From a virus, in the IMG/VR virus record IMGVR_UViG_3300028595_000292, positions 1-29,478 of that record: a stretch of 29,478 nt of DNA; one strand, 5' to 3'. Below the pieces are notes generated by a model. The model was not told the origin of the DNA. It made no database searches and was given only the letters and a program-made list of their open reading frames with translations. Position 1 is the stretch's first letter; each line of letters opens with the position of its first letter. Below are positions 2,410 through 26,877 of this stretch, piece by piece. The position numbers and the translations under genes were made by a program.

Positions 2410-2449
2410 ACCCTACCAAGCCGGCACTATCGGAAGTTAAAACCTATCA
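2410..2449 (-). promoter_or_regulatory. Putative phage late promoter, copy 1 (lysis cassette)
   Basis: One of four 40-bp sequences that align without gaps. Reading leftward it has TGATAGGTTTT at element positions 1-11, CGAT at 18-21 and TGGTAGGGT at 32-40, followed by GAAG. The last part fits an extended -10 (TGnTAnnnT). The upstream box overlaps the last codons (MIGFNFR) of the giant internal virion protein gene, so the lysis cassette appears to have its own promoter embedded in the end of the preceding gene. Confidence 0.65.
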
Positions 2450-5400
2450 TCTTGGCCCTATTTTCTGCGGCTTCCCGGCTCGTCCCCTGGTTTCGCAGGC
2501 GGTCGTAGGCCAGGGTCTTCGCTACGCCAGGCATCACCCCCATTTGTTCCAGATACCGCCCCGAGTGGACGGCTGTGTCGGTCTCGCCGGCAGCGCCAAT
2601 CGCCTTCTTGGCGATGTGTTCCAAGATGACTTTTCGCACGGCAGGCGGGACGGCATTCGGATCGGTCAGCGGATTCGGGTATCGCTCCAGCGGCTCGCGC
2701 TGAAGGGCGGCCCTGGCCAACCCGGTCCTTGCCCGATCGACTGCACTGCGATCCTCAGCAGGAAGGTTTCGTGCCGCCTTCCGAATGTCAGTCAACAGCG
2801 CGGAGACATACTGACAACGGCGCCACGAATCCAAGTCCTCTTCCCGCTCGCCGCCGTGCAGCTTATTCGATTCGTGCGATTTATCGAGCGATTCCTTTTT
2901 CGCGTAGAAGTCATCCACGCTCTTCGTGTAATCCTTACGAAACGTGATACCCTTCATGCCGGGGATGTCGTGGGCCGTCCAGTATTCGCCGCTGGCAATC
3001 TTGTCTACCGGCGCATTGACCTTGCCGTAGAGCCCGCCGCTGAGCCCGTTTGCGAGATGGTCGATCTTCGCCGGGCTCAGGCTGACCTTTCCGCCGCTAA
3101 CCTTGTGCAGCATTTCAGCCACACCCTTAGCGACCTTTGACGTGTAGTCGTAATACTGGTCCGGCCCTTCGAGTTTTTGCAGAGCGTCAGATACGATCGG
3201 CCGGTCGCGGAACGCATCGTAATTGAAAAGCGTCTCGAACATCGGTGTAACGCCCGCCGGCAGGCCACCAGGATTCGCCGTATCGAGCACCTGCTCGAAC
3301 CACCGCGTCACTGCCTTGGGGTCCTTGTCGTACATAGCATCCATCATGCGCTCGATGCCGGACTCAATTAGGCCCCATTCCTGCGACTTCGGAATCCGCC
3401 AGACAGGCTCGCCTTCTGCGTTCTTCAAGACGAAGAACGAATCCTGCCACTCCGGCCGTTCCTTGTAGTCGTCATCGTCGTGGCGATACCACCAGTACGT
3501 GAGCGCGAGCGGCACGATATTCAGCCCTACCCGCATCGTCGACCGGCCAGGGTGGTCCTTGAACGTGCGGACAAACTTGTCGAGACCTTCGAGCCTCGCG
3601 TTAAAGAACGGGATGTAGTAGTTGAGGTAGCGGCCCCACTTCCCGAGCCGACGGAAGTCAACAGTGACGTCATGTGAGGCGTTGACTGCTCGCACGAGCA
3701 CCGGCAACGGCGGCGTCTCGCCAGCCTCAACCCGCTCCAGCCAGCCTTCCCTACCGAGGATCGCCGCGAACTCGGCAATTCTTGGCCCCACTTCCGTAAC
3801 CCCGGCGATGTTGATAGCAGTCTCGACCTTGCCCTGCCGACCGGCCAGTGCCCGCTTCCTGCCGGCACGGAGCCGGGCGCGATCGAGCCCCGCGTAAGTC
3901 GAAAGCTCCCCGCCCATCTGCTGGAACAACTCGACAACTGGGCTGCCTTTCTCGCCGGCCGCCGCACGGAGTTCCGAAACGACGTACAGCGCCACATAGC
4001 GAGCGGGATCGAAGGCGCCCTTCAATCCCTTCTCGCCCTGCATTAAGAACGTCTCTAAGTCGCGGATGCCATTGCTGACATAGAAGTCGGGATTGAACCG
4101 AGTGGCACCAATCTTCAACATCCCGGTAAAGGCCCTGGCCGTGCGCGTGGCGATGTCCAATGCCTGCATTGTCTCCAGCCCACCGAGCGATTCGGCCAAC
4201 TGGGAATCGAGATAGTAAAATACCGGCTTGCCGTCTTGCGTCACACGGACAATGGGCTGGCCGTTCACCTTCGCCAGATCGGGCCGCCAAATTGTCATCG
4301 CCAGCATCGGGTCGATGAGATCCAAAAGCGGGTCGGCGTCTACGCCGGACTCCGCTTCGATCTCTTTCTTGAGTACCGCCTTGATCTCGTCGAATTTGAA
4401 TTCCGTGGCGATAACGCCTGGCGGCACACGGCATACCCATTTCCCAAGCCCTTCCGTGCCTTCGGCAACCTCAACCAGCTTATTAACAACGATCTGCTGC
4501 GCGGCACGTTCGTAAAGACGAATGGCCCGCGAGATCGTGGACTCCACCGGATCAATGATTTGCAGACCGCTGCCGCGACGACCCTTGATTGCCGACGAAA
4601 GGTCCACCATCCGCCGCCCGCCGCCACCGCGGGCCCCCTGCTTCGCGCGCTCCAGCGGAATATAATACTTGTACTCAGCGAGAATGATCTGCTTCGTCTT
4701 CTGGTCAATCACGCCGACATCTGCGAGCACTTCAATCAGGGCATTGTTGAACTGCGTCAGCGCATCGGCCGCCGCCTCGTAGCGAGGATCGTACAACTGC
4801 CGCATGGTCTCTTTGGCGTCCTCGCGAGTGATGCCTGGACCCTTTGGCTTTGCGGTCTTTCCGTCGCCTTCCCGCGTGCTAACCGGGTTCTTTTCACGAT
4901 CCCACGATTCGGCGGCATGTCGGGCATAGGCCCACGCGATGAAGTTCGTATAATCTTCGCCCGGCTCGATCTCGGCAAGCGCGTCAGAGAGCGAAGGACC
5001 AACCCGCTCCATCTGGCCGGAGAGTTTGAAGACGCCGCGCTCAATTGCCATCGCCGCGAAATGCGGCCCGACCTGTCGCAAGGCGTTGTAATCCTCGAAG
5101 GGCGTCGTATCGTCACCTGGATCGTAGCCTTCTTTCTTGGCCGCATCCACGAATCGTTTTACCGGCCGCCCCTCCTCCTTGATCTGCGTATACAGGTATT
5201 CCTTCCACTCGTTTACACGCTCCAGAAGCGGCTTCGCCCGTTCTTCGTCGATCCCGGTCTCGCTAATCTGCCCCTTCACGCGGCCGGGCGCCCCGGCCCG
5301 CTTGAATGCCTCCAACGGTTCACGAGTCGCGTCAAGCTTTGCCTTGACCTCCGGGTGCGCCTCAACCCACTGCTCGAAGTGTGCGAGAAACTTCGGGGCC

Positions 5401-7388
5401 ACGTCCGCAAGATCGACGCCGCCCTTGTGGGTCTCGGTCGCACCGGTCAGATACGCCCTAACGAACTCGGCAAACCCCTCGAAATCTCGCAGCTTGCTTT
5501 GGTCGTAGTCCAGCTTGGCGACTTCCGCCTTGGCTTCGGCCGGCGCGCTCTTGAGTACATCCGACGTATTGTCCAGATGGTGCCCGATAACCTCATGGAC
5601 AGCCACGGCGACCGACGCCTCTTCGCCCTTGGCGAGCCGGCTAACCCGCTGTTTCAGCTTGTAGATGCCACGGGCGGCTCGCATCCTAGTACGGCCCGAC
5701 CTGATCGGGACGTCCCAAATCTGCTCCACGCGCCGCACGAGTTCCCGGCCGCCGATCCGCTCGCCGGTCCCTTCCATCTCGACCGGAAAGTCGTGCTCCG
5801 CCGGCGCAGTGCCCTGTGCCGCCCTGGTTTCCTGAGCAGCCACTTGCTGCGGCCCGGGTTGAACTGCCGCCGTTTCGCTGGGCTGCCCCACGGGCTCCAG
5901 GCTAGCCGTCTCTCCCTGCGCCGCCGTCACAGGCGAAGGCACGGCCGCTTGCGCTGGCGGCATCTGCGGCACGAACTTCTTGACGAGATACTTCTGACGA
6001 CCCTCTTCCGTCTTGCCTTCTTTTGCCGGCAGGCCCAACTCCCGCCACTGCGCGGCAGTCGGCGTCACGCCGGCAACCACGAACTTCAACTGGTCGATGG
6101 TTTGCTGGCTCTTGACGATCTTTTTCGCCGTTGCCAATCGCTGCTTTCGGGTCTTGCCCTCTTCGGCCGGCAGGCCCCACTTCTCCCATTGCGCCCTGGC
6201 CGGCGCGTGCCCCTTGGCGACGACCTCAGCGATCTCCTGTAACGTCTTGGCTTGCTTCGACCCCTCAGCGAACCGCTTGTAGCGGACCACGGATTCGCCG
6301 GCACGGACGGCGCCACCCACCCCACCCAGCACGGCCAAGCCAGGCAGGGCCTCTTTCGCCTGGCTGTAGCCCTCAGCCAGTACGTCGATTGCGTGCCGAT
6401 CCTCGGTCTCACCGCCGACCAGGAGCTTCGCCCCCTCCTGGACACCGCCCTGAAGGCCCTCCTCGACCGCCTCAAGGCCGGTGCGCTTCAGGGCGTCTAC
6501 TCCAGCCCCGACAACCCGGCGCGTCACAGGATGCCGCACGAGCGACGAGGCGGCCTTTCCGCCGATCTTCTCGACAGCCTCGGCGAGCGCCCGGCGGGCT
6601 ATTCCCTTAATGGGCTTTGCGGCCCCCCGCGTCAGGCCAGTCGGGTCGATGTTCAGAAGCTCGATCCCACCGACTGCCGCGGCGGTCGCCGTTCCAGCCA
6701 GCGAGGAGGCGCCAGACGAAAGCCCCATCTCCAGAAAATCCTCACGCGCCTCCGGCTGCTCCCGGGCCGTCCAGTATCCCATCATGGCAGCCGGGCCGCC
6801 CGCCGCGTTGGCCAGCAGGCCGGCGGCCATGTCGGGGGCCATCCCCGCGGCACCGGCCGCAGCCTTGAGACTCAGGGGTGCATCCTTCCCGAGATACGGG
6901 TTCTCGCCCTGCTTCGCCCCCTCCAGCGCACGGGCGAACTGCACATCCTCCTGCGATCGCCCCTTGCCCTGCGTCCAGTCGCGGAGCTTGCCCGCGGCCT
7001 CCGTCATCCCGGTGCCCGCCTCAGCAAAAGAGCCGCCGACCTTCTGAACCCGCTTGCCGAGCCGCCCCAGGTAGCCGGCCTCGTTATACTCCTCCTGCTC
7101 GGCCCACTCCCGAGCCTTGGCGATCTTGGCGACCTCGCCCACGAGCCAGCGGCGTTCTTCGGGGTCAGTAACTTCCTTGAGCGCCTTCTCTGAATACGTG
7201 TCCCGCGTACCACTCAACGGAGCGACCAGCCCCCACACGTACTTATCGCGCAGGTACTCGCGCCGGCGGGCGACCTGCTCGCCGGTTTGCGCGAGCGCAT
7301 CGCGCACGCCGCTATCGAGCTTCGGCCTCGTCATGGCCTCGGGCGGGACCTGTGCAAGGGCAGCCGAAAGTTCCGGGTCCAGGGGCAT
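2427..7388 (-). CDS. Giant internal virion/ejection protein with LPD38-like domain
   Basis: At 1653 residues this is the largest gene here. The N-terminal third has Ala/Gly-rich hydrophobic stretches (about 165-240) as in phage ejection proteins. Two related units, AQWEKWGLPAEEGKT and AQWRELGLPAKEGKT, lie in residues about 394-428 and 441-475. A HEVIGHHLD motif starts at His598; it resembles a zinc-peptidase motif but has three, not two, residues between Glu and the next His. The part around Asn1099 (TRFNPDFYVSNGIRD) fits the 'large polyvalent protein' LPD38-type domain of virion proteins. The start overlaps the upstream stop (TAATG). By size and position it is probably ejected with the DNA, as T7 gp16 is; enzymatic activity is unproven. 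Confidence 0.85.
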   Translation of the reverse strand: MPLDPELSAALAQVPPEAMTRPKLDSGVRDALAQTGEQVARRREYLRDKYVWGLVAPLSGTRDTYSEKALKEVTDPEERRWLVGEVAKIAKAREWAEQEEYNEAGYLGRLGKRVQKVGGSFAEAGTGMTEAAGKLRDWTQGKGRSQEDVQFARALEGAKQGENPYLGKDAPLSLKAAAGAAGMAPDMAAGLLANAAGGPAAMMGYWTAREQPEAREDFLEMGLSSGASSLAGTATAAAVGGIELLNIDPTGLTRGAAKPIKGIARRALAEAVEKIGGKAASSLVRHPVTRRVVGAGVDALKRTGLEAVEEGLQGGVQEGAKLLVGGETEDRHAIDVLAEGYSQAKEALPGLAVLGGVGGAVRAGESVVRYKRFAEGSKQAKTLQEIAEVVAKGHAPARAQWEKWGLPAEEGKTRKQRLATAKKIVKSQQTIDQLKFVVAGVTPTAAQWRELGLPAKEGKTEEGRQKYLVKKFVPQMPPAQAAVPSPVTAAQGETASLEPVGQPSETAAVQPGPQQVAAQETRAAQGTAPAEHDFPVEMEGTGERIGGRELVRRVEQIWDVPIRSGRTRMRAARGIYKLKQRVSRLAKGEEASVAVAVHEVIGHHLDNTSDVLKSAPAEAKAEVAKLDYDQSKLRDFEGFAEFVRAYLTGATETHKGGVDLADVAPKFLAHFEQWVEAHPEVKAKLDATREPLEAFKRAGAPGRVKGQISETGIDEERAKPLLERVNEWKEYLYTQIKEEGRPVKRFVDAAKKEGYDPGDDTTPFEDYNALRQVGPHFAAMAIERGVFKLSGQMERVGPSLSDALAEIEPGEDYTNFIAWAYARHAAESWDREKNPVSTREGDGKTAKPKGPGITREDAKETMRQLYDPRYEAAADALTQFNNALIEVLADVGVIDQKTKQIILAEYKYYIPLERAKQGARGGGGRRMVDLSSAIKGRRGSGLQIIDPVESTISRAIRLYERAAQQIVVNKLVEVAEGTEGLGKWVCRVPPGVIATEFKFDEIKAVLKKEIEAESGVDADPLLDLIDPMLAMTIWRPDLAKVNGQPIVRVTQDGKPVFYYLDSQLAESLGGLETMQALDIATRTARAFTGMLKIGATRFNPDFYVSNGIRDLETFLMQGEKGLKGAFDPARYVALYVVSELRAAAGEKGSPVVELFQQMGGELSTYAGLDRARLRAGRKRALAGRQGKVETAINIAGVTEVGPRIAEFAAILGREGWLERVEAGETPPLPVLVRAVNASHDVTVDFRRLGKWGRYLNYYIPFFNARLEGLDKFVRTFKDHPGRSTMRVGLNIVPLALTYWWYRHDDDDYKERPEWQDSFFVLKNAEGEPVWRIPKSQEWGLIESGIERMMDAMYDKDPKAVTRWFEQVLDTANPGGLPAGVTPMFETLFNYDAFRDRPIVSDALQKLEGPDQYYDYTSKVAKGVAEMLHKVSGGKVSLSPAKIDHLANGLSGGLYGKVNAPVDKIASGEYWTAHDIPGMKGITFRKDYTKSVDDFYAKKESLDKSHESNKLHGGEREEDLDSWRRCQYVSALLTDIRKAARNLPAEDRSAVDRARTGLARAALQREPLERYPNPLTDPNAVPPAVRKVILEHIAKKAIGAAGETDTAVHSGRYLEQMGVMPGVAKTLAYDRLRNQGTSREAAENRAKMIGFNFR

Positions 7389-8407
7389 TACTGGCTTTCG
7401 TATTGCTTGAGGAGCTTGGCGGCGTAGAGGTACGCGGAGCGCTGATCTTCCGGCACGCCGGAGTAACCGCCGTACTTGGCGGTCAACGTGCGAAAGTAAC
7501 TGGCCGCATAACCGACTTGCGGGGGCAACTCGCGGTCACTGTCCTGGACCTGGAGCCCCTGCGACTCTGCCCGCTCCCACCACTGCTGCTGCTTTTGCGG
7601 CTGCTGCTCACCGCCGAGCACGGTTCGCATGATCGACTCGACTTCCTCCGGCGTCCGCTGCCTCCGCGACGGCGTGCCGTCAGCGCCCTGCTCAATCACA
7701 TCTTCCGTGGCGAGCTTCAGCCGCAGATCCAGCAGGCGATCCTCGCGCTTCGCCTGCAACTCAAGCTGCTTTGCCTGCTGCGTGGCCTCCGCCTGAAGCT
7801 TGGCGGCCTCGGGCCCCTGGTCCCATCGCTGAATCAACTTCGGGTTGCCCTCCATGTCGAACATGATTGTTGAACCGGCCTCGTTGACCATAGTATCGCC
7901 AGGGGCCTGCCCCTCCTTGAAAGTCGGCTTACTCGGATCGCGGGGTATCATGGACGGCTGGATATTCGCCTGCTGAAGGTCGATTTGCCTCATGGCGACC
8001 TGCTTCTCTTCTTCCGAGAATTGATCGCTGGACATAATCGCCTGCCGCGCGTTATTGAAGCGCGCGAAGTCCCGCCGCTGCTCGGCCGAATAGTTATACT
8101 CGACTTGCTGGGCCTGAAGTCGCGCCTGCTCCTGCATCCCAGTCAGCCGGCGATCAAACTCCTGTTCGCGGACCTGCTGGTCAAGCCCGAATTGCAGGGC
8201 CGTGCGCGCAGTGGCGTCATCAGCAGCCTGCTTCTGTAAATCAGAGCGGGCCTCAATGTCCCGCATCTGCATGTTGCGCTGATTCCAAAGCTGCTCCGCC
8301 AGATGCGAGTCGCGCTGCTGCCTGTCCAGGTCGCGCTGTCCAGCCTGGGCAATGATCTGGCCGGCAGCGGTCCCGGCCTGGCCGCCGTGTCCTACGGTGA
8401 TTCCCAT
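7388..8407 (-). CDS. Gln-rich coiled-coil internal virion protein
   Basis: The 339-residue protein is rich in Gln, Arg and Glu. A Gly/Ala-rich head (MGITVGHGGQAGTAAGQ) is followed by long predicted coiled-coil segments (about 28-135 and 190-240), a short PQKQQQWW stretch and an aromatic C terminus (ASYFRTLTAKYGGY). This composition and its place between the tail proteins and the giant ejection protein suit an inner-core protein like T7 gp14/gp15, though no specific family is recognised. Its start has the best Shine-Dalgarno in the window (AGGAGGAAGTT before ATG). Its stop overlaps the start of the giant protein by one base, which suggests coupled translation of partners. Confidence 0.8.
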   Translation of the reverse strand: MGITVGHGGQAGTAAGQIIAQAGQRDLDRQQRDSHLAEQLWNQRNMQMRDIEARSDLQKQAADDATARTALQFGLDQQVREQEFDRRLTGMQEQARLQAQQVEYNYSAEQRRDFARFNNARQAIMSSDQFSEEEKQVAMRQIDLQQANIQPSMIPRDPSKPTFKEGQAPGDTMVNEAGSTIMFDMEGNPKLIQRWDQGPEAAKLQAEATQQAKQLELQAKREDRLLDLRLKLATEDVIEQGADGTPSRRQRTPEEVESIMRTVLGGEQQPQKQQQWWERAESQGLQVQDSDRELPPQVGYAASYFRTLTAKYGGYSGVPEDQRSAYLYAAKLLKQYESQ

Positions 8408-8416
8408 AACTTCCTC

Positions 8417-8941
8417 CTAGCTCTGAAGCCCCGCGAGCGCCTGAAGCATGGTCGAAAGCCCCTGCCCCTGTCCGTACTGCGACCCGACCCCGGCAATGAG
8501 CGACTGCACCGCGCCGAGATCCGGGTAGGGGTCTTCGCGGCTGCCGATGATGCCGAGTTTCGTCTGTTGCATCTGATCGGCGAGGCGATCCAGCGATGAC
8601 TGCCGCTCACGCTCAACGCCCATCTGCATCGTCGGAGCGACGGTCGTGTTCGACATGCCAAGTCGACCGAGACGCTGCATGATGTCAGACTCACGCTGCC
8701 CGTAATCACTCGTGATGTCCGCCGCTCGCTGTTGCGTCGTCTGGTTGGCGATACCGAGCATCTGCTGGTAGCGAGCCTCGTTTGCGGACTTCGCCTGCCC
8801 GTAAGCCTGATTGTAGTTATTGACCAGTGCCGACAGCCCGCTCGTAACTTCCGCGCTCGGACTATTGGAAGTCGTAATCATTGGCGTTCGCCAAGTCTGC
8901 GAGAGCGGCCTCCCGGTCGGGTATTGTGCGCTGAAAGTCAT
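8417..8941 (-). CDS. Helical virion protein, probable ejection component
   Basis: The 174-residue protein has a disordered, Ser/Thr-rich start, then a long helical part (about 40-135) rich in Gln, Ala and Met, including YNQAYGQAKSANEARYQQML, and a Gly/Gln-rich tail. An AGGAGTTCGGT ribosome site precedes the ATG at 8941, and the stop lies 10 bases before the next start. The gene belongs to the three-gene block of internal virion proteins that ends with the 1653-residue protein. By analogy with podophages carrying three ejected proteins, this could be the smallest of the three. That comparison rests on order, size and composition, not sequence similarity. Confidence 0.75.
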   Translation of the reverse strand: MTFSAQYPTGRPLSQTWRTPMITTSNSPSAEVTSGLSALVNNYNQAYGQAKSANEARYQQMLGIANQTTQQRAADITSDYGQRESDIMQRLGRLGMSNTTVAPTMQMGVERERQSSLDRLADQMQQTKLGIIGSREDPYPDLGAVQSLIAGVGSQYGQGQGLSTMLQALAGLQS

Positions 8942-8953
8942 ACCGAACTCCTG

Positions 8954-9799
8954 TTAAGGTGTACTTATTTCCAAGGTAGTCCCGTCGACCGACATGACTT
9001 GCGTGAAGTCGGTAGTAAACACTGGCGTAATGTCCTCAGTATCAGCCGCAGTTTCGGCCTCCAGGCGAACCGACACCCCATCACCTATGTATATCGCAGC
9101 CGATCCGATGAATTTCGTACTACCCGCCCGCAATGACATAAAGGTTACTGTGAATGCCAAGCCCTCAGTCGTAATCTCGATCTCATCCGGGACGTTATTG
9201 GTCGGGGGCAATAGCCCCATACCCGCGGCGTACCCGACCTGTGCGAGTAGCGCGTCTGCATCGTCTCTAATCGCGCACGACCAGAGACCATTGCCCGTTT
9301 CGGCGGCCGTAATCACAACCTCGGCTACCGTACCGCCGACCTCAACCTCTTGTGATTTCGTAAGCGTCTCGCCGTCAACGATGCTTACAACAGTCAGCGT
9401 CAGCGTCTCGCCGTTTGCCGCGTCCGTAAGCTCAAACTCCAGCGACGGCTCGGCGCCCCAGAAACCATCCGACTCCGTATAAACGCTCGTAGCAATTGCC
9501 GCGTAACTGTCGCCCCCCGAGAACTTCAGGTTGACGGTCTCGCCGCCAAGCTTCGCCGACCAAACCAGGACACTCGTTTCGGCCGGCTCCTGCGTCTTGT
9601 AGTCGGTATGGTCGCAGAGATACGCCGTCACGTCCGCCGTGCCGTCATAGGCCACGGAATCCGGGCCGGTTACAGCAATCGAGTAATCCGCTGTGTATCC
9701 AGGCGGGAACGGCCCCGGAAATTGCCAATCGGGATTCCAGCCCGGCGGCACGTCCGGCGCGGACACAACGGCAGGTTTGGCGGTATACGCTCCACCCAC
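8954..9799 (-). CDS. Beta-rich virion protein, possible tail fibre or Ig-like protein
   Basis: The 281-residue protein begins with a Pro/Trp-rich segment (VPPGWNPDWQFPGPFPPG), followed by beta-strand-rich sequence with patterns such as DSVAYDGTADVTAYL and LTLTVVSIVDGETLTKSQEVEV that resemble bacterial Ig-like or cell-surface adhesion repeats. It is strongly acidic and has few Cys or Lys. It uses a GTG start at 9799, nine bases after the upstream stop. It lies next to two proteins with fibre-type modules, so it may be part of the host-recognition apparatus or a particle decoration. No family is recognised. Confidence 0.75.
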   Translation of the reverse strand: MGGAYTAKPAVVSAPDVPPGWNPDWQFPGPFPPGYTADYSIAVTGPDSVAYDGTADVTAYLCDHTDYKTQEPAETSVLVWSAKLGGETVNLKFSGGDSYAAIATSVYTESDGFWGAEPSLEFELTDAANGETLTLTVVSIVDGETLTKSQEVEVGGTVAEVVITAAETGNGLWSCAIRDDADALLAQVGYAAGMGLLPPTNNVPDEIEITTEGLAFTVTFMSLRAGSTKFIGSAAIYIGDGVSVRLEAETAADTEDITPVFTTDFTQVMSVDGTTLEISTP

Positions 9800-9807
9800 A
9801 AGGGCAC

Positions 9808-10287: not shown

Positions 10288-10296
10288 GGGAATCTC

Positions 10297-13584: not shown

Positions 13585-13619
13585 GAAAAACCCGGCGACC
13601 CAGAGCGGGCCGCCGGGGG
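13585..13619 (-). terminator. Intrinsic terminator within the leftward late genes
   Basis: Read leftward: stem CCCGGCG/CGCCGGG (13617-13611 with 13597-13591), an inner CCC/GGG pairing, then five T (complement of 13586-13590). It follows the stop of the fibre-like gene at 13633 and precedes the ribosome site of the next gene. No promoter of the 40-bp family lies just downstream, so part of the transcription must read through. It probably sets a lower level for the nozzle and ejection genes. Confidence 0.8.
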
Positions 13620-17985: not shown

Positions 17986-18047
17986 TATGTTTTCCTCTCG
18001 AAAATTTGGTCACTCACAAAAGACGAATCAACTCCCGTGCCCAGCCG

Positions 18048-19085
18048 CTAAGCGGGGTTGTGCAGGACGGTCTGGCGCCGCAGGTTGGTGCAGACCATGT
18101 TCAGCGTGCAATCGAGATCCACGCGCCGGACCAGGTGCTTGTTGGGCACCATGTACGGCTTGGTCAACTGGTTCTCCCAGCCGGCCAGAATGCCGATCGC
18201 CAGCCACTTCCAGTCGAGCATGTAGACCGGGTTCTCGGTGTCGTCATCCAACTTGGGCGCGTAGGTGATCGGCGTGCCCTTGAACAGCGTGCGGCCATCC
18301 TTGGAGGCCAGGTCGTTCCCCAAGTTCATGTTCTGCTTTTCGAGTTCCTCTTCCATGAGGCCGACAACCTCGTCATTGGTGTAGATCCCGTTCTTCATCG
18401 CGGCAAGCTCGGGCTGAGCATGAGAGACCGGCGAACGGAACTGCGTGGTACGATGCGCCCGACGCATCATGCGAATCAAGTCCTCCTTGGTGATTTCGCT
18501 GTAGGCGCCGGAGCGATTCGCCCATCGCGGATACGTCGCGGACGAGAGGTTGCCACGACCCGAATCGAAGCCGGTCGGGTTCCCGCCGTTGAAGCCCTCG
18601 GTCGCGTTCTTGACGACCCAGTATGCGATGCCGAAGGGCGTCTTGTTGTCCGTGCTGTCGTCAGGCTTGGACCACAGGATCGCTTCCATCAACTCGTAGA
18701 GCGACACCATCATCCCGACATAGCGAGTCTGGATCAAATCGACGATCGCCTTGCCGCCCCGCTGGAACGCCTTCTCCCGCTGGTCGTAGATGTAGTGCGC
18801 ATTGATGTGCCGGGGATTCACCTTACCCTGGATCATCGTGTCGGTCAACGCGGAACCGTCCGTTTCGAAAAGGCCGACCGTTCGCGCGGAATGGTTATGG
18901 TCGATCTGGGCCTCGAACTCCCAGTCGTCCCCGCCCTCGAACTTCTTCTTGCGACCCTTCCACATCTCGCGCACGGCGACATGATCGGTCAGGTCCGTCT
19001 GCAAGTCGAGGAAAGCGCCCTTCTTGATCAGGTTCTCCTGAGTCAGAAGGACAGCATCATCAATGTCCGCGTACTGAATCGTCAT
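18048..19085 (-). CDS. Major capsid protein
   Basis: The 345-residue protein follows the scaffold gene, as in most tailed phages. It has an N-terminal arm (ADIDDAVLLTQENLIKKGAF), a central part (QGKVNPRHINAHYIYDQREK, KAIVDLIQTRYVGMMVSLYE) with the long helix expected of an HK97-like fold, and a C-terminal beta region (GTPITYAPKLDDDTENPVYM, DWKWLAIGI). This pattern fits the shorter major capsid proteins of podovirus-like phages with no N-terminal delta domain; the scaffold is a separate gene. The ATG at 19085 has GGGAG upstream. It forms the head shell of several hundred copies. Confidence 0.85.
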   Translation of the reverse strand: MTIQYADIDDAVLLTQENLIKKGAFLDLQTDLTDHVAVREMWKGRKKKFEGGDDWEFEAQIDHNHSARTVGLFETDGSALTDTMIQGKVNPRHINAHYIYDQREKAFQRGGKAIVDLIQTRYVGMMVSLYELMEAILWSKPDDSTDNKTPFGIAYWVVKNATEGFNGGNPTGFDSGRGNLSSATYPRWANRSGAYSEITKEDLIRMMRRAHRTTQFRSPVSHAQPELAAMKNGIYTNDEVVGLMEEELEKQNMNLGNDLASKDGRTLFKGTPITYAPKLDDDTENPVYMLDWKWLAIGILAGWENQLTKPYMVPNKHLVRRVDLDCTLNMVCTNLRRQTVLHNPA

Positions 19086-19114
19086 CTGCCGTTACTCCCG
19101 TCCCCCTGGCAGAC

Positions 19115-20164: not shown

Positions 20165-20185
20165 GTTCTCTTCCTCTCTCTTCGA

Positions 20186-20533
20186 TTAGTAAAACTCGTT
20201 GCGGCTATGCAAGTCACGCGCCGCCAACGCTCTCCTCCGATGGTGCATGTCACGGTAAACGGGATTGCCGTCTCGCGTGACTTCTGTTGGCACACCCTTA
20301 CGCTTCAAGAACTCCCGAAGCTCGCCGGCCTGCGAGGCGTTGACGCCGGAGCCGATACACTCAATCGGCCAGGCCGCGTCTCCCGATCTGCGGCGCGGCG
20401 AATGCTCAGCCTGGAAATCACGCTCGGCGACCAAACCGTCATCCAGCACAACGGTAGGCGGGGCCTCGCCCCGCTCGAAATCTCGGTCAACTGTGATGCC
20501 GCCAGGCACGGTATAGCAGTAGGTCACTCGCAT
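20186..20533 (-). CDS. Conserved small phage protein (WP...GVPT...HRR pattern)
   Basis: The 115-residue protein begins MRVTYCYTVPGGITVDRDF. Its C-terminal half has AAWPIECIGSGVNASQAGEL, KRKGVPTEVTRDGNPVY and MHHRRRALAARDL. This 'WP...gv.p.Q..e......GVPT....G.P........HRR' pattern is frequent in proteins encoded between portal and capsid genes of environmental phages; their role is unknown. The start at 20533 (ATG) lies seven bases after the -10-like hexamer of promoter copy 2, so the mRNA may be leaderless. The open frame goes on upstream to 20557 but that part overlaps the promoter element. Confidence 0.75.
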   Translation of the reverse strand: MRVTYCYTVPGGITVDRDFERGEAPPTVVLDDGLVAERDFQAEHSPRRRSGDAAWPIECIGSGVNASQAGELREFLKRKGVPTEVTRDGNPVYRDMHHRRRALAARDLHSRNEFY

Positions 20534-20540
20534 ATCTTCC

Positions 20541-20580
20541 ACCCTAACAAGACCCATTCATCCGACCGGAAAACCTATCA
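20541..20580 (-). promoter_or_regulatory. Putative phage late promoter, copy 2 (head genes)
   Basis: Gap-free match to the other three elements: TGATAGGTTTTCC at positions 1-13, GGAT at 18-21 and TGTTAGGGT at 32-40, followed by GGAAG. It lies in the gap between the portal stop and the start of the small conserved gene before scaffold and capsid, which would allow separate strong expression of the head genes. Confidence 0.7.
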
Positions 20581-20587
20581 CGACTTG

Positions 20588-22321
20588 CTAGACAGCCCCG
20601 CCCGAAGCCCCCTGCATCTCGGAATCCTGGACGCCTCCGCCCATCAAAAGCTGCTGCATGGCGGCGCTGGCGCCCTGCCGAGATTGGCCTGGCTGACCCT
20701 TGCGCACATACTCCCGCGTCGTGTGGGCCGGCGCATTGGACGACGACTTCCAGCCGGGCTGCTGCATCGGCTCCATGAAGGTCACGTAATCCGCGACCTC
20801 CGGCATGTCGGCATACTTCCCGATGTCCTCTAAGATCCGCTGCACGTCGATCGTCCCGCCGGCCTGCTCAATCAGCGGCGCCATCGGGAAAACGTATTGC
20901 GTCATGATGAGACCGAGCTTCTGAAGCTTCGTGCTCGGCGAATTGTCCTGGAGTGAATACACGTCAATGGCGAGATCGTATTGCGAGAACTCGCCCTGCT
21001 TCGACTCGCGCCCCCAGTTGATGACAACACTCAGCGACGTGCCGGGAATCGGCTTTTCAAGCTTCCGCCGCTTGATCGGATCGTGCCATTCATAGTAGGC
21101 CAGGGCCGTGAATATCTCGCCCGAAGTCTCGACCACGCAATCGGCCATGTCGCGCAACTGCGCGCTGGCAGCCTCGCCGATCAACTTGTCCTGGCCCACC
21201 GTCTCCGTAAGCGGAGCCAGGCCGCCAAGGCTGTCCAGGTTGCCGGCGAAGTAAGAGAAGAGATCGCGGACTTGCATGTCGAACGCGAGCGTCTTGGGAT
21301 CGACACCGCCGGCCTCCAGCTTTTCGGGCCTGCCGCCGTTGTAAGCGATTCCTTCCCCGTCCTTCGCCTTCTTGAATCCTTCCACCGACTCGTCATTGCC
21401 GCCCGGGAAGCCGAGCACGCGCTTGAACGCCTCGGCTTCGTTGCCGAGCTTGCGAAACAGCGAGTTGGCCAACTCATGAAGATCGCGCCAGATCGCCACG
21501 GGCGGGAGCGGAACCGTGTTGCCCGGCACTTCAGAGAAGCAGAGCTTCGGGTACGGCCCCCGCTCTGGCCCATCCCAGTCAACAACGCGATGCAGCCGCT
21601 CGCTCTTAACACCGTAGGTCAACAGCAGGCCCTCATCCGGCAGCCACACGTCACGGAGCCAGAGCTTATCCTTGGCAGTCTCCGGTGAAGAATCCGCCGT
21701 CATGCTCTCTGCCCGGTCCTCGCCGGCAGGCCCGATCAAGGTATACTCGTCTGCCTTCAGGCCATCCTTACGCTTGAACGCATCCGACTCCATGAACTCC
21801 TCGTAATCGAGCCAGTAGTCGTTTCCCTCGTAGTCGATCTGGTCGGCCGACTTCGCCGCCATGTCAACGAAGTAGTCGTCAAGCGTGACGAGATCGACGA
21901 ACGACTCGCCGTAATCATGGCCGAGCGCTTTACCGACCGTATGCAGGCCGATCTTCACGATCCCCCACGGCGAGAAAATGGCCTCCGTCACCATACGGCG
22001 CAGCGTTGCGCCGAGCTTGACTTCAGGCGGAATCTGATTGACCGCGAGTTCAAGGTTCGCGGCGGTCGGCCTGAGACCGGATTCCTTGGTCGTAATCAGT
22101 ACGCGGGGAGCACGGGGCGCAAGCATGCGCACGTAGATGAGCACCGCCAGCGCGATCAGCGGCACCGGAACGCGCAACGTCGCGCCGTCCTCGCAATGGT
22201 GATAGCCGACGAATTGCTTCACCGCGGCGATCCGCTCCTTGCGGGGGAAATCGAACTGCCGCTGCGACCAGTCGATGCTTTTCCGCAGACGTGAAAACTG
22301 CCGCACATTATTCGGGTTCAT
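20588..22321 (-). CDS. Portal protein
   Basis: The 577-residue protein follows the large terminase and precedes the capsid block, the usual place of the portal. The N-terminal part (RKERIAAVKQFVGYHHCEDG, NLELAVNQIPPEVKLGATLR) and the central EIFTALAYYEWHDPIKRR and DLHELANSLFRKLGNEAEAF helices fit podophage-type portals, which form a dodecameric ring at one capsid vertex and act with the terminase in packaging. The C terminus is disordered and Gln/Gly-rich (GQPGQSRQGASAAMQQLLMG). The ATG at 22321 has TGGAGCTTGAT before it. No fused protease or minor head domain is visible. Confidence 0.85.
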   Translation of the reverse strand: MNPNNVRQFSRLRKSIDWSQRQFDFPRKERIAAVKQFVGYHHCEDGATLRVPVPLIALAVLIYVRMLAPRAPRVLITTKESGLRPTAANLELAVNQIPPEVKLGATLRRMVTEAIFSPWGIVKIGLHTVGKALGHDYGESFVDLVTLDDYFVDMAAKSADQIDYEGNDYWLDYEEFMESDAFKRKDGLKADEYTLIGPAGEDRAESMTADSSPETAKDKLWLRDVWLPDEGLLLTYGVKSERLHRVVDWDGPERGPYPKLCFSEVPGNTVPLPPVAIWRDLHELANSLFRKLGNEAEAFKRVLGFPGGNDESVEGFKKAKDGEGIAYNGGRPEKLEAGGVDPKTLAFDMQVRDLFSYFAGNLDSLGGLAPLTETVGQDKLIGEAASAQLRDMADCVVETSGEIFTALAYYEWHDPIKRRKLEKPIPGTSLSVVINWGRESKQGEFSQYDLAIDVYSLQDNSPSTKLQKLGLIMTQYVFPMAPLIEQAGGTIDVQRILEDIGKYADMPEVADYVTFMEPMQQPGWKSSSNAPAHTTREYVRKGQPGQSRQGASAAMQQLLMGGGVQDSEMQGASGGAV

Positions 22322-22334
22322 ATCAAGCTCCAGG

Positions 22335-24140
22335 TCAGTACCAGCCGTCGCCTTCGTTCTTGTGTGCCATTTCCTCGCGCATCTTGTTTCGCCACGCCAG
22401 CGACCCGACAGGAATCGTAGGGGGCTCGAACACTGGATGACGGCGAGTGCGCTCCATAGTTCCGCGCCACGCCAAGGCGTCCGCCATTACGCGGTCGCCG
22501 TGATTCGCCTTCGCGCCGGACGGATCAACCTTTCGTGTAGCGCGACTATGGTCAATGCTGCCGTCCGGTGTGAAAATGTATTCAAGCGTTTCGTCCATCG
22601 CCTCTTTCGAGCGGTTGACACAATCGCCCTTCTCGATCGCCGCACGATACGCACCCATCAACACGAGTTTCTTCTCTTTCGTCGAAGCCCAGCCGGGAAT
22701 GTCCGAGACTTTCTTACTGATCGCCTCTTCTTGCTGGCGCAAGTAAATATGCCCGTATCCAAGCTCGACCACGCGAGAGCCGAACTGCCGGCCGGGACCA
22801 TTCGATTCCCAGATCAAAAAGGCGTTGCCGAGCCAGCGCGCAATCGCCACGGCGGCCTTGCCGAAATCCTCGGGGCGAATGTACGGGTTGGCGTACTCCA
22901 GGATCTTCTCGTGCGTCACGATGTCGTAAGCCGCCAGGCACGAATTGCTGGCGCCAGTACCAGCCGAGACATCCGCTCCCAGTGCAACCCTGTGAATCGC
23001 CGACGGCTTATCGTCCCGGCCCAGCAAACTCCAAAGCCGCAGGCGACCCTCCGAGTTTTCGACAAACCGGATCGCCTCAGCCGTGTCCGCGTCGTATTCC
23101 AAGTCACCGATCACGACCGGCGGCCGGGCGTACTTGCGGATCATTTCCTGGATCGTTTCGGCGCGAAAGTATTGATACCCGGAACCCAGGTAGTCGATGT
23201 CAAGTTCCTGCGCAACCTCTTGCGGACTCACGCAGCGCTCGCACTCTTCGTCGTACCACGGCGACCGGAGCTTGCCGTCCAGGATAGGCTTATAGCCGCC
23301 GGGGTAACCGACGGGATCAAGTATCTTCAGATTGCCGTCGTCATCCGTCGTGTAGAGCCCGAGCGACTTGACGGGGTGTTCGGACCAGTGCAGCCGCAGC
23401 TTTCTGATATTCGTCTCGCGCATATCGAAGAAAGCGTTATTCGTGCCCTCGGGCGTGCTATTGAAGATGCGACACTTCGTCGCGTCCCGGGTCGCCCGTA
23501 AGACGCTCTGCCCCTGCTCAACCGCGGCGAACTCGTCCAGGAGGATCGCCGTGCGCCGGTCGCCGCGGGCCACGCGGCCGGTAGTCGATTCGCCATCTAC
23601 GACCGAGCCGGTCGCCGGATTCTCGGCGTGCATCTTGCGGCGATGCTTGCTTTTCTCGTATCCAACCGGCCTGAGCCAAGCCGGCTGATAGTCGAGGAGA
23701 TAATCGAATTTCCAGAAAAGCGCCTTGGGGTTGCCGGCCTGGTCCACGTAATCCTCGACGCGGGAGACCATCAGAAACGACAGCCCCTCCCGCCAATGCC
23801 AGCACCACTCGAACGCCGACACGCACAACCACGACGCCCCCATGTCACGGCTTTTCTCCAGGAGGAGGTCGTGGCTCGTGATCGCCCGGATGAGTTCCAG
23901 GATCGCCTCTTCCTGAAAGTCGTAGAGAATGAACGGAACCCGCGTGAACGGCTCAAGGCGGGGATCGAAGGTGTAAGTGAAACCGTTCAAGTAGAAGAGC
24001 GGGTCGGCCGCGCACGCCTCCCGAATCACGTCGATGTATCCGGGCTCACGCATCACCCGTTCATGGACGGCAGCCCGCCATTCGAGATTGCCCCGAAGGT
24101 CCTTGGGTATGTGATGCGCGAATGGAGTCGAGACCTTCAT
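22335..24140 (-). CDS. terL: Terminase large subunit
   Basis: The 601-residue packaging motor has both expected domains. ATPase: a variant Walker A LLLEKSRDMGAS (Lys96-Ser103), Walker B TAILLDE (Asp202, Glu203 as catalytic carboxylate) and an STPEG coupling motif near residue 228. Nuclease: ALGADVSAG (Asp390), LIWESNGPG (Glu445) and a late NHGDRVMADAL (Asp) form a plausible acidic metal site of the RNase H fold. The enzyme translocates and cuts the DNA concatemer at the portal. Its ATG overlaps the stop of the zinc-cluster gene (ATGA) and has no clear ribosome site, so it is probably translated by coupling. Confidence 0.93.
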   Translation of the reverse strand: MKVSTPFAHHIPKDLRGNLEWRAAVHERVMREPGYIDVIREACAADPLFYLNGFTYTFDPRLEPFTRVPFILYDFQEEAILELIRAITSHDLLLEKSRDMGASWLCVSAFEWCWHWREGLSFLMVSRVEDYVDQAGNPKALFWKFDYLLDYQPAWLRPVGYEKSKHRRKMHAENPATGSVVDGESTTGRVARGDRRTAILLDEFAAVEQGQSVLRATRDATKCRIFNSTPEGTNNAFFDMRETNIRKLRLHWSEHPVKSLGLYTTDDDGNLKILDPVGYPGGYKPILDGKLRSPWYDEECERCVSPQEVAQELDIDYLGSGYQYFRAETIQEMIRKYARPPVVIGDLEYDADTAEAIRFVENSEGRLRLWSLLGRDDKPSAIHRVALGADVSAGTGASNSCLAAYDIVTHEKILEYANPYIRPEDFGKAAVAIARWLGNAFLIWESNGPGRQFGSRVVELGYGHIYLRQQEEAISKKVSDIPGWASTKEKKLVLMGAYRAAIEKGDCVNRSKEAMDETLEYIFTPDGSIDHSRATRKVDPSGAKANHGDRVMADALAWRGTMERTRRHPVFEPPTIPVGSLAWRNKMREEMAHKNEGDGWY

Positions 24141-24433
24141 TGCTGTCTGTCAATGAGCACCTGCTCGTGTTCGTCCCGGCACGCCGGCGAACAATAAAAC
24201 CGCCACTCCTGATGTTCGTCACCAACCGCCCGGCAGCGAACTGTGACCCCACAACCGGCAGCACAAATAGCCGAGCCGCTGGTGCGAACACACGTCCGGC
24301 CCAACGGCTTGCCGCAGAAGTCACACGTCGTAACTTCCTCCTGTTGGGGCTTCGCTCTCTTCTGCCGACGGGGCTTCTTCCGCGGCTTGAATCCCACCCG
24401 CGTCGTCGGCGGTTTCCGCTTGCGCTTCGCCAT
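24137..24433 (-). CDS. Small zinc-cluster protein overlapping terminase genes
   Basis: The 98-residue protein has a very basic start (MAKRKRKPPT, KPRKKPRRQKRAK) and eight Cys: a CDFC pair at 37/40, Cys48, 57, 61 and 67, then CSPAC at 81/85 followed by His89. The last motif (FYCSPACRDEH) recalls TRASH/MYM-type zinc fingers. It probably binds nucleic acid or terminase. The first 113 bases lie inside the terminase-small-like gene in another frame, and the last bases overlap the terL start. A strong AGAAGAGAGGGAAGAG site before the ATG at 24433 decides the start. Too short a frame to be seen as separate unless this start is used. Confidence 0.75.
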   Translation of the reverse strand: MAKRKRKPPTTRVGFKPRKKPRRQKRAKPQQEEVTTCDFCGKPLGRTCVRTSGSAICAAGCGVTVRCRAVGDEHQEWRFYCSPACRDEHEQVLIDRQQ

Positions 24434-25208
24434 TCTCTTCCCTCTCTTCTGTGAGGTTCGCCAGCATCCTGTCGATCTCGGCAAGGCTGCGACGGCCTGA
24501 CTTCTCTGCATTTCGCCGCGCTTCGGCGTCGGCGTCTGTCTTGGATTCCGCCTGCCCGAGCCGGCCCATGAAATCCCGCGGCTCTTCGATCGCCTGCCGG
24601 TAGAGATAGAAGGCCGCGTCACACGGGCACGAGGTCGGATTCTCGCCGGTACGCAAGTGCCGGCCGGCGGCCTCGATTGCCCACCGCAAGGACTCGCGGT
24701 AACCTTGTTGCTTCCCCTCGTTGCGAACTCCCTCTTCGTCGACCGCCGGCTGTCCAAAGTGGCGGATCGTAGGATGCGACTCGGGATTCGGGTCGAACTG
24801 CGAGACGTCGTACTCGCGGAACAGCCGGTGCAGGCAACGGAACTCTTTCGACGCGCGGACCACCGACTGGTTCCTGTCGAGGCCGCCTGCTTCAAGCTCC
24901 TCGACGCGCTTCGTCCAAGTGTCATACTCCGGCTTCTCGGAGGTCGAACTCTGCCGCCAGAGAATCGAGCGGGCCCGCTTGGCGAACTCCGCGATACTCG
25001 ACCCCGTTGCCGGATCGGGCCTGGCCACAGGCCGAACAGCGCCAAGGCGTTTACACGTCTTGCTGATCGCCTCGGCGCTGACGCCGAACTCGCGCCCCAG
25101 ATCGGCCTGCTTCTCGCCGGCCACGTAACGCCTGGCAATCTCCTGCCGCTGCTCGTCCGTCAGCTTGGCATTGCGCGGCAGGGGCTTCTGGTCGGTGGTA
25201 TCTCCCAT
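24321..25208 (-). CDS. Terminase small subunit-like protein, HTH at N terminus
   Basis: The 295-residue protein starts with a helix-turn-helix (about 16-48: EQRQEIARRYVAGEKQADLG, REFGVSAEAISKTCKRLG) of the type used by small terminases and site-specific DNA-binding proteins. A helical middle (KRVEELEAGG, VRASKEFRCLHRLF) is followed by a very acidic C terminus (ETADDAGGIQAAEEAPSAEE). It heads the unit with the large terminase and portal, so recognition of phage DNA for packaging is the best guess; it is longer than most small terminases. The ATG at 25208 has no ribosome site and lies six bases after the -10-like hexamer, so the mRNA may start at the A of the ATG. Confidence 0.72.
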   Translation of the reverse strand: MGDTTDQKPLPRNAKLTDEQRQEIARRYVAGEKQADLGREFGVSAEAISKTCKRLGAVRPVARPDPATGSSIAEFAKRARSILWRQSSTSEKPEYDTWTKRVEELEAGGLDRNQSVVRASKEFRCLHRLFREYDVSQFDPNPESHPTIRHFGQPAVDEEGVRNEGKQQGYRESLRWAIEAAGRHLRTGENPTSCPCDAAFYLYRQAIEEPRDFMGRLGQAESKTDADAEARRNAEKSGRRSLAEIDRMLANLTEEREENGEAQAETADDAGGIQAAEEAPSAEESEAPTGGSYDV

Positions 25209-25214
25209 TCTTTC

Positions 25215-25254
25215 AGGCTAGCAAGAGGGCCTGATCGCACCGGAAAAACTATCA
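25215..25254 (-). promoter_or_regulatory. Putative phage late promoter, copy 3 (packaging genes)
   Basis: Gap-free member of the four-copy family: TGATAGTTTTTCC at positions 1-13, CGAT at 18-21 and TGCTAGCCT at 32-40, followed by GAAAGA and then the ATG. It lies between an intrinsic terminator and the terminase-small-like gene, the arrangement expected of a real promoter at the head of a new unit. Confidence 0.75.
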
Positions 25255-25263
25255 TGGCGCATC

Positions 25264-25290
25264 GAAAAAGCCCGGGGTAAACCGGGCTTG
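25264..25290 (-). terminator. Intrinsic terminator of the first leftward unit
   Basis: Read leftward: AAGCCCGG, a six-base loop, CCGGGCTT, then TTTC (five T in all, complement of 25265-25269). It follows the stop of the gene at 25314 and is followed at once by promoter copy 3, so it separates two transcription units. Confidence 0.85.
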
Positions 25291-25313
25291 GGGGGGTAGT
25301 AGAGAGAACAGTA

Positions 25314-26162
25314 TCACGCAGTCTCGGATTGAGCGAGCGGTTCCGTCAAGTAGAACTCCTCCCGCCCGTCAACACTCCTGCGAAGGATCATCGTGCGGCG
25401 CATGAGCCCGGCCATTGCCGAGAGCAATTCGATCCAGGTAACACTGCCAACACGGTCCTTAATGTCGCTGAGCGAAAGCGAGGAGGATGCGCTGGTATTC
25501 CACATCGCGCTGAGGATCGCCCGCCTGATCGCAGCGGGCCGACTCCCTCTCTCCGCCGGGTTGATCTTGAGTGCCGGCCACCCACAGTAAATCCAGTAAG
25601 CCAGGCCGCACGGCTCGGGGTCGAAGGGTGAAGCCTTGAGCTTCTCTGCAGCATCCTTGCGCATGGCCTCGGCACCACTGGCCTTCACTTCCGCCTTGCA
25701 CTTGGCAAGTACCTCTGCTCGTTGGCGCCGCAAGCGATCCGCCCAGCGCTTCGACATATACACGCGCTGGCGGCGATCGTTGTAAAGGTCGGCAATATCT
25801 TCACTCTTACGAAGCCGCTTCAAGATCCCCGTAAGCTCGTGCCCCTTGGCGAACCCTACAACTCGCTGAAGCTGTGAAAAGGTGACGCCGGTCGCGCCGG
25901 CCTGTTCTATGATCGCAAGAATAATCGCCTCCTTACGGGTAGTCCATACACCATCGCTTCCTCGCGTTCGTGACAGCGCCTTGTCAAACAGCGTATCCTC
26001 CGGTTCCTCGAACCAGACGCCGCCGGAGAGTGCAAGCCCTAGCTGTTCCAATTCACTCCACGTCCAGCCGGCCTCAATCTGATATTGCGCGCTGGCCCGG
26101 CATTTGTCGCAGAGTCCGCGAAAGCCGGCCTCTCCTTCGCATCCCTCGATAATGCACTTCAT
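25314..26162 (-). CDS. Zinc-finger protein with winged-helix-like C-terminal regions
   Basis: The 282-residue protein starts with a compact zinc motif, CIIEGCEGEAGFRGLCDKC (C-x4-C-x9-C-x2-C), followed by WTWSELEQLGL. The same module opens the preceding gene. The rest has two stretches resembling winged-helix DNA-binding domains: EAIILAIIEQAGATGVTFSQ with LTGILKRLRKSEDIADLYND, and RRAILSAMWN, LSLSDIKDRV, EFYLTEPLAQ. A basic helical linker (RRQRAEVLAKCKAEVK) lies between. It may be a phage transcription or replication regulator. The ATG at 26162 is preceded by GAAGAGAGG, 13 bases upstream. No named family is recognised. Confidence 0.75.
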   Translation of the reverse strand: MKCIIEGCEGEAGFRGLCDKCRASAQYQIEAGWTWSELEQLGLALSGGVWFEEPEDTLFDKALSRTRGSDGVWTTRKEAIILAIIEQAGATGVTFSQLQRVVGFAKGHELTGILKRLRKSEDIADLYNDRRQRVYMSKRWADRLRRQRAEVLAKCKAEVKASGAEAMRKDAAEKLKASPFDPEPCGLAYWIYCGWPALKINPAERGSRPAAIRRAILSAMWNTSASSSLSLSDIKDRVGSVTWIELLSAMAGLMRRTMILRRSVDGREEFYLTEPLAQSETA

Positions 26163-26223
26163 TTCTCAGAACCTCTCTTCAGACGGTGTTATTGCCCCGT
26201 CTCGTACACGAACGCACGGCCGG

Positions 26224-26790
26224 CTACTGTTGCCAAGGCGGTACAACGGGCTGCTCGGGCTCGGCCTGCTGCGGCTCAACGGCAACATTCAGAGGTTCGG
26301 CGGGTGGCAGGTTAGTCAGACCAATGGCCGGCGGCTGGGCCGGCGGCGCCTGCTGCTGGCCAGGGCCCATAACCAGCGGAGCCGGCGGAACCGGATACTG
26401 TCCAGGGCGCACCTCCGGGAGGATGCCAATTTCACCCGTGGTCGGGAAAGCCGCGTCAGTTTCATCCATGATGGTTGCCGTGCGCTGCTGGCCGGGGCCC
26501 ATGGTCGGCGGCTCGAACTCGCCATCAAGCTCCTGCTTGATCGCCCGTGGATCTGGGGCCGCCGGCGACTCGGGCTGCGCCAGTAGCTCCTCGAAGGCAA
26601 CGCGGAAGGGATTCCTCTGGGTAGCACTCACCACGTTCTTCGGCGGCAGCGAAAGCCCCATCGCCTCTAACTCCTCCCACGTCGTCTTGCCGTTGCTAAC
26701 CGCCTTCAGCGCTGTCTGGTAGCACGACCGACAAAGCCCACGGCAATACGCCTTCCGCTCGCAACTCTTGACCAGGCACTTCTTCTTCAT
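26224..26790 (-). CDS. Zinc-module protein with Pro/Gln-rich tail
   Basis: The 188-residue protein opens with the motif CLVKSCERKAYCRGLCRSCY, which has Cys spacing C-x4-C-x5-C-x3-C-x2-C, then TTWEELEAMGLSLPPK, matching the module of the next gene. From about residue 60 it is disordered and rich in Pro, Gln and Glu, with a repeated MGPGQQ phrase (twice). Such a design suits a scaffold-like or regulatory adaptor that binds nucleic acid or a host protein through the zinc module. It is the first gene of the leftward region, about 40 bases downstream of the start predicted for promoter copy 4, with GGAGAAGAGAG before the ATG. Confidence 0.72.
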   Translation of the reverse strand: MKKKCLVKSCERKAYCRGLCRSCYQTALKAVSNGKTTWEELEAMGLSLPPKNVVSATQRNPFRVAFEELLAQPESPAAPDPRAIKQELDGEFEPPTMGPGQQRTATIMDETDAAFPTTGEIGILPEVRPGQYPVPPAPLVMGPGQQQAPPAQPPAIGLTNLPPAEPLNVAVEPQQAEPEQPVVPPWQQ

Positions 26791-26837
26791 CTCTCTTCTC
26801 CGGTAACTGAGGTAGGAAAGTGAACGTCACTACCTTC

Positions 26838-26877
26838 AGATTAACATGCCGGCCTGATCGGAAAGGAAAACCTATCA
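26838..26877 (-). promoter_or_regulatory. Putative phage late promoter, copy 4 (first leftward unit)
   Basis: Gap-free member of the four-copy family: TGATAGGTTTTCC at positions 1-13, CGAT at 18-21 and TGTTAATCT at 32-40, then GAAGG. Unlike copies 1-3 it has a leader of about 40 bases before the first start codon, which carries a normal ribosome site. Confidence 0.7.

What the first reader, a model, noticed from the sequence alone, without database searches (positions are those of the whole stretch)
2410..26877. Four gap-free 40-bp elements head the four leftward transcription units
Elements at 2410-2449, 20541-20580, 25215-25254 and 26838-26877 align over 40 bp with no gap. Identical in all four: TGATAG, TTTT (positions 8-11), GAT or equivalent (19-21), TG (32-33), TA (35-36) and T (40); G and A-rich bases follow. 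The end fits an extended -10 (TGnTAnnnT), but no -35 box is at the usual distance. Instead a conserved TGATAGGTTTTCC box lies about 21 bp before the -10. This suggests a phage-specific late promoter needing an activator or a modified polymerase, perhaps encoded in the early region.
Basis: partly seen in the sequence, partly recalled or inferred. Interest (0 to 1): 0.85.

Follow-up and report, generated by a model that had tools for sequence, protein, structure and literature searches.

The report
Phage late promoters with private activator box
Four matching DNA switches in an uncultured virus of bacteria turn on its late (packaging, capsid, lysis) genes; related viruses carry switches at the same places with the same polymerase-binding half but a different upstream half, as if each virus has its own key and lock.

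Summary
The four 40-bp minus-strand elements share 20 invariant columns and form the only clique of 3 or more similar 40-mers in the window; three shuffles gave none. A weight matrix scores them 53-57 bits; the next site scores 6.7 and shuffle maxima reach 8.6.

I gathered about 85 relatives, 14 of them 43-57 kb. The 3' half is a sigma70-type extended -10 (TGnTAnnnT, then G/A-rich). It is conserved by position before the capsid operon: 21 of 38 gaps of 40 nt or more have it, against 4.3 expected. Spacing from -10 to start codon there is 6-7 nt (leaderless) or at least 16 nt.

The 5' box is private to each phage. In six of the 14 long relatives another box repeats ahead of an extended -10 or close variant, mostly at the window's positions. 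Others have canonical TTGACA promoters there. No sigma region 2 was found in 15 records.

Best reading: host-RNAP late promoters, without -35, switched on by a phage activator bound around -46 to -34, probably encoded in the first late operon (window gene B; XRE proteins in two relatives). The activator is inferred; no transcript has been mapped.

The parts
26838..26877 (-). Element 4 (P1): box 26865-26877, TG 26845-26846, -10 hexamer TAATCT 26838-26843; heads genes A and B, with a leader of about 40 nt
   Evidence: same position used in G001, G003, G004, G008
25215..25254 (-). Element 3 (P2): box 25242-25254, -10 hexamer TAGCCT 25215-25220; ATG of gene C 6 nt further on (leaderless spacing); heads TerS-TerL-portal
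   Evidence: follows a terminator; same position in G004 and G008
20541..20580 (-). Element 2 (P3): box 20568-20580, -10 hexamer TAGGGT 20541-20546; ATG 20533 after 7 nt; heads the small protein-scaffold-capsid operon
   Evidence: extended -10 at this place across the family
2410..2449 (-). Element 1 (P4): box 2437-2449 (TGATAGGTTTTAA), -10 hexamer TAGGGT 2410-2415; between the giant internal-protein gene and the peptidase/lysis genes
   Evidence: same position in G001, G003, G005
25268..25289 (-). intrinsic terminator hairpin AAGCCCGG-TTTACC-CCGGGCTT plus U tract, just before element 3
   Evidence: -14.4 kcal/mol, 1 of 200 shuffles as stable; hairpins at the matching place in G004 and G008 read by eye
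25314..26162 (-). gene B, 282 aa: Cys-rich N-terminus plus winged-helix-like DNA-binding region(s); candidate late activator (inferred)
   Evidence: Pfam Rpc34 winged-helix E 8e-5, below cut-off; low-confidence model, pLDDT 48, with winged-helix order at residues 210-273
26224..26790 (-). gene A, 188 aa: Cys-rich N-terminus (like B) and a Pro-rich tail
24321..25208 (-). gene C, probable small terminase with N-terminal HTH (HTH_38/sigma r4-like)
   Evidence: lies directly before TerL in the family
22335..24140 (-). large terminase
   Evidence: PHROG 2, E 3.8e-15
20588..22321 (-). portal-position protein (syntenic, not matched to a family)
20186..20533 (-). small conserved first gene of the capsid operon
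18048..19085 (-). major capsid protein
   Evidence: PHROG 9953, E 1.9e-5; alignment A1
1791..2405 (-). peptidase-like gene after element 1; true start uncertain (ATG 2405 or GTG 2372)
28373..28401 (+). canonical TTGACA-17-TATGCT promoter-like site for the rightward (early) genes, as contrast
   Evidence: 10 of 12 matches

Best explanation
The four elements are the late promoters of a tailed phage related to phages found in Verrucomicrobiota. Host RNA polymerase with a sigma70-type factor recognises the extended -10 (TGnTAnnnT) and the purine-rich discriminator after it. There is no -35 box; a phage-encoded DNA-binding activator bound to TGATAGGTTTTCC (about -46 to -34, perhaps with the right half-site CCGATCA of a dyad) recruits or activates polymerase instead. 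Copies stand before each late module: regulator genes A-B (P1), terminase-portal (P2), capsid operon (P3), peptidase-lysis (P4). The activator is probably made from the P1 operon (window gene B), giving positive feedback. Where the start codon falls 6-7 nt after the -10 the mRNA would be leaderless. Shown: element, extended -10, positions, private boxes in relatives. Inferred: the activator, its identity, timing and leaderless starts.
For: Uniqueness. Promoter half: 21 of 38 unique portal-to-capsid-operon gaps of 40 nt or more hold TGnTAnnnT (shuffle mean 4.3, max 11); TGnTAnAAT 14 of 38 (mean 0.4); 1 of 22 gaps under 40 nt; reverse complement 3. Spacing to the start codon there is 6,6,6,6,7 and then 16 or more, never 8-15, as expected if the hexamer sets the 5' end. 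Private boxes at matching places: G001 (GTCGCGTTCC: P1, P3, P4), G003 (RGTGGCTGG: P1, P3, P4), G004 (GTACYGAGA: P1, P2, P3), G008 (GTGGGGCA: P1, P2, P3), G005 (CGGTCAC: P3, P4), G006 (two copies at P3). The box-plus--10 patterns for G001, G004, G005, G006, G008 and the window match nowhere else in those records. Second copies stand at z 5.0-7.7 in G001, G003, G006, G008 and z 4.1 in G004. Relatives G002 and G013 have TTGACA- or TTGACT-type -35 boxes 17 bp before an extended -10 at P3. Terminator before P2. No sigma region 2 in the family. HTH genes between P1 and P2 in G004 and G008.
Against: No transcript or binding data. The window box was not found in any relative, and a looser scan of the viral collection gave five stretches, about what chance predicts (these were not inspected). 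Gene B is predicted only weakly to bind DNA and its C-terminal part has no relatives. XRE proteins are often repressors. Element 1 puts ATG only 4 nt after the hexamer, too close for a normal leaderless start; the real start may lie downstream. The window's -10 hexamers (TAGGGT, TAGCCT, TAATCT) are poor. Some relatives (G007, G009-G012, G014) showed no repeated box, and the G001 P1 and G008 P1 copies depart from the pattern (no TG; box one base nearer).
Confidence: 0.72

Rival explanations
1. The box is an operator for a phage repressor that keeps late genes silent in the prophage; the promoters fire when it is removed.
For: Six long relatives carry a phage-integrase-family gene cluster, and the regulator candidates in G004 and G008 are XRE-type, hitting repressor families in PHROGs.
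Against: The box-type promoters lack a -35 and in the window, G004 and G008 have poor -10s, so they should be weak without help; relatives without a repeated box have full -35 boxes at the same place, as if box and -35 substitute for each other.
Confidence: 0.13
2. The elements are promoters for a phage-encoded RNA polymerase or sigma factor, the TGATAG box being part of its recognition site.
For: Forty conserved bp with no -35; half the genome is missing from the window.
Against: No sigma region 2 in the window or 14 relatives (control positive); no T7-type polymerase (control silent); relatives carry plain sigma70 promoters at the same place.
Confidence: 0.06
3. Not promoters: RNA leaders or boundary sequences kept for recombination or translation control.
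For: They lie in tight gene gaps directly before start codons.
Against: The -10 stays while the rest changes between phages; spacing to the start codon is bimodal; a terminator precedes P2.
Confidence: 0.04
4. Directional repressor stop sites like the stoperators of mycobacteriophage L5.
For: Short, asymmetric, one orientation, near gene starts.
Against: Only four exact copies, each with a -10 at fixed distance, none without.
Confidence: 0.03

Closest known systems
Phage Mu late promoters (Plys, PI, PP, Pmom) activated by C protein (PMC4461284)
   Same: Four late promoters with non-consensus -10 and -35, and one activator site at or just upstream of -35, host RNAP
   Different: No Mu C or Mor family protein found; site sequence differs; here the activator gene is thought to lie behind the same promoter type; sites differ between close relatives
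Late transcriptional regulators RinA/Ltr/Alt of Gram-positive temperate phages (PMC13123087)
   Same: Small DNA-binding protein coded directly upstream of the late (terminase) promoter it controls
   Different: Those phages make one late transcript from one promoter with repeats upstream; here up to four promoters repeat the site
Leaderless TAnnnT promoters of Deinococcus-Thermus and high-GC bacteria (PMC12340547, PMC3160421)
   Same: TAnnnT about 12 bp before the start codon, -35 often missing
   Different: Here an extended TG and a phage-specific box are added, and only some promoters are leaderless
T4 middle promoters (MotA box; own knowledge)
   Same: Activator box replaces -35, sigma70 -10 kept
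   Different: MotA box is centred near -30, here near -40; no MotA/AsiA found or sought by family

Membership tests
sigma70 extended -10 promoter | TGnTAnnnT at fixed distance before the transcription start | tested here: met
   Motif present in all four elements; enriched by position in relatives; the start itself is not mapped
sigma70 extended -10 promoter | transcription starts 6-8 nt after the hexamer | not testable with these tools
   No RNA data
canonical sigma70 promoter | TTGACA-like -35 16-18 bp before the -10 | tested here: not met
   met in relatives G002 and G013
activator-dependent late promoter (Mu C / Ltr kind) | same specific site before several late promoters, near or overlapping -35 | tested here: met
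activator-dependent late promoter (Mu C / Ltr kind) | activity needs the phage protein | not testable with these tools
   needs reporter or mutant
Ltr/RinA arrangement | DNA-binding protein gene directly upstream of the terminase-block promoter | tested here: met
   G004 and G008: XRE genes; window: gene B, weak winged-helix match
Mu C/Mor activator family | Mor/C family protein in the phage | tested here: inconclusive
   Only a weak, sub-cut-off Mor match in terminase-position gene C; half the genome is missing
T7-type phage RNA polymerase promoter | phage single-subunit RNA polymerase | tested here: inconclusive
   None in 15 records, but the control search was silent
phage sigma-factor promoter | sigma region 2 protein in the phage | tested here: not met
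   None in 15 records, control positive in 10 of 14; the window is partial
L5-type stoperators | many copies, independent of promoters | tested here: not met
   Four exact copies, each tied to a -10

The most novel reading that the evidence does not exclude
A phage family in which a self-activated late regulator and its box are re-specified from phage to phage at up to four fixed genome positions, while the extended -10 stays fixed, and in which some capsid mRNAs are leaderless. The XRE proteins of G004 and G008 (56% identical overall) differ at the three residues that in 434 repressor contact bases (my alignment by eye), as their boxes differ, which would make a natural series of regulator-site pairs.
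Probability: 0.4. Interest if true: 0.62.

Novelty: new variant of a known kind. Interest (0 to 1): 0.48.

Why it matters
It gives a testable model of late control in an uncultured phage family with relatives in Verrucomicrobiota, for which the library search found no promoter work. Because promoter positions and the -10 are fixed while the upstream box changes and is sometimes replaced by a plain -35, the family is a natural experiment on how regulator-DNA specificity changes and how promoters gain or lose activator dependence. It also supplies late-promoter patterns for annotating these viruses.

Tried and rejected
Exact box pattern across the viral collection: no hits. A looser pattern gave five stretches, about what chance predicts for 18 fixed bases; not followed up. 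Window weight matrix on relatives: nothing, which led to looking for each phage's own box. Sigma54 and sigma28 readings were considered by eye and dropped: no GG at -24, wrong spacing. A T7-like start at GGG was considered and dropped because elements 3 and 4 lack GGG and relatives show sigma70 promoters. Relatives of gene B beyond its Cys-rich end: none. Structure of B: mean pLDDT 48, so no fold search was made. Solved structures like B: none. Dyad TGATAGG-N9-CCGATCA: good in element 4 (6 of 7), 4-5 of 7 in the others; counted by eye, only suggestive.

Full report
OBSERVATION. The window is a 29,478-base virus record, 61% G+C. The four elements are on the minus strand exactly where stated. 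Twenty of 40 columns are invariant and pairwise identity is 26-30 of 40. Among all 40-mers of the window in direct orientation they are the only group of three or more that are mutually alike at 26/40 or better; three shuffles gave none. Matrix scores are 53-57 bits, next best 6.7, shuffle maxima 0.6-8.6. The box core occurs exactly four times.

SURROUNDINGS. Leftward genes run A (26790), B (26162), C (25208, small-terminase position), TerL, portal position, small protein (20533), scaffold position, capsid, tail and internal proteins, giant protein (2427-7388), then peptidase-like and lysis-region genes. Element 4 heads A-B, element 3 C-TerL-portal, element 2 the capsid operon, element 1 the peptidase genes. 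A terminator hairpin stands between B and element 3. The sigma70 scan puts a canonical promoter-like site at 28373 for the rightward genes and nothing at the four elements.

RELATIVES. TerL and capsid searches gave about 85 related loci; three lie in cellular genome records: Cerasicoccus frondis, a Verrucomicrobia MAG and a Balneolia MAG. Fourteen relatives of 43-57 kb were read in pieces. Gene order is kept. The window box is in none of the loci scanned.

PROMOTER HALF. Before the small first gene of the capsid operon, 21 of 38 unique gaps of 40 nt or more hold TGnTAnnnT (shuffle mean 4.3, max 11 of 300), 14 of 38 hold TGnTAnAAT (mean 0.4), against 1 of 22 and 0 of 22 when the gap is shorter; the reverse complement control is 3. 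Distance from hexamer to start codon is 6-7 nt in five loci and 16 or more in the other sixteen, never 8-15. This two-peaked spacing is what leaderless versus ribosome-site-bearing messages would give, and the 12-13 bp from the first T of the hexamer to ATG in elements 2 and 3 matches the leaderless signal described in PMC3160421.

BOX HALF. Some relatives have an ordinary -35 at this place (read by eye): G002 TTGACA-17-TACAAT, G013 TTGACT-17-TATAAT, L059 TTGACA-17-TATAAT. Others have no -35 but a sequence of their own repeated ahead of a TAnnnT (or close) hexamer. G001: GTCGCGTTCC at P1 (1244), P3 (7386), P4 (25462). G003: RGTGGCTGG at P1 (11320), P3 (17113), P4 (36792). G004: GTACYGAGA at P1 (27309), P2 (28178), P3 (34557). 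G008: GTGGGGCA at P1 (48239), P2 (47718), P3 (41562). G005: CGGTCAC at P3 and P4. G006: two copies at P3. The search patterns match only at these places for G001, G004, G005, G006, G008 and the window; they were written from the sites, so this shows rarity, not independent discovery. The anchored scan, which was not told where to look for the second copy, put it first at z 6.5 (G001), 5.0 (G003), 7.7 (G006), 6.3 (G008) and 4.1 (G004, two sites); it missed G005 and G008 P1, where spacing differs by one base.

REGULATOR. G004 has two tandem XRE-type HTH genes between P1 and P2, G008 one; G004a and G008 are 56% identical. A hairpin follows these genes before P2 (by eye). Window gene B sits in the same slot and has a weak winged-helix match and a low-confidence model. 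B as activator is a guess from position; A, C or a gene outside the window remain possible.

ALTERNATIVES. No sigma region 2 was found (control positive) and no T7-type polymerase (control silent), so a private polymerase is unlikely. A repressor operator is possible; absent -35 boxes and poor -10s argue for activation.

COMPARISON. Mu late promoters under C (PMC4461284) and Ltr/RinA late regulators (PMC13123087) are the nearest known logic; neither family was matched by sequence here. What is new is the combination: up to four positions per genome, a private box per phage, canonical promoters in some kin, and leaderless spacing in part of them.

Noticed in passing
window 25314-26162 and 26224-26790: Genes A and B share a Cys-rich N-terminal domain of about 45 aa (CxxxxCxxxAxxRGLCxxCY...TWxELExxGL) found in eight of 15 records, sometimes on the opposite strand; no Pfam family.
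   Followed up: partly
window 26900-28400: About 1.5 kb with no convincing gene between the leftward and rightward sets, holding a 25-nt inverted repeat (26999-27023 / 27045-27069, 84% complementary).
   Followed up: no
L007, L014: The first gene of the capsid operon seems to start with ATT in these relatives, where others have ATG.
   Followed up: no
L100:12572-13492 and L094:2777-3841: A trypsin-like protease gene lies between small and large terminase in G003 (Pfam hit); G001 has a gene of the same cluster there.
   Followed up: no
window 24321-25208: The small-terminase-position protein has an N-terminal HTH resembling sigma region 4 in several relatives, but not in G003, G004 or G008.
   Followed up: partly
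window 13591-13617, minus strand: Strong terminator-like hairpin (12 pairs, then TTTTT) inside the structural gene block.
   Followed up: no
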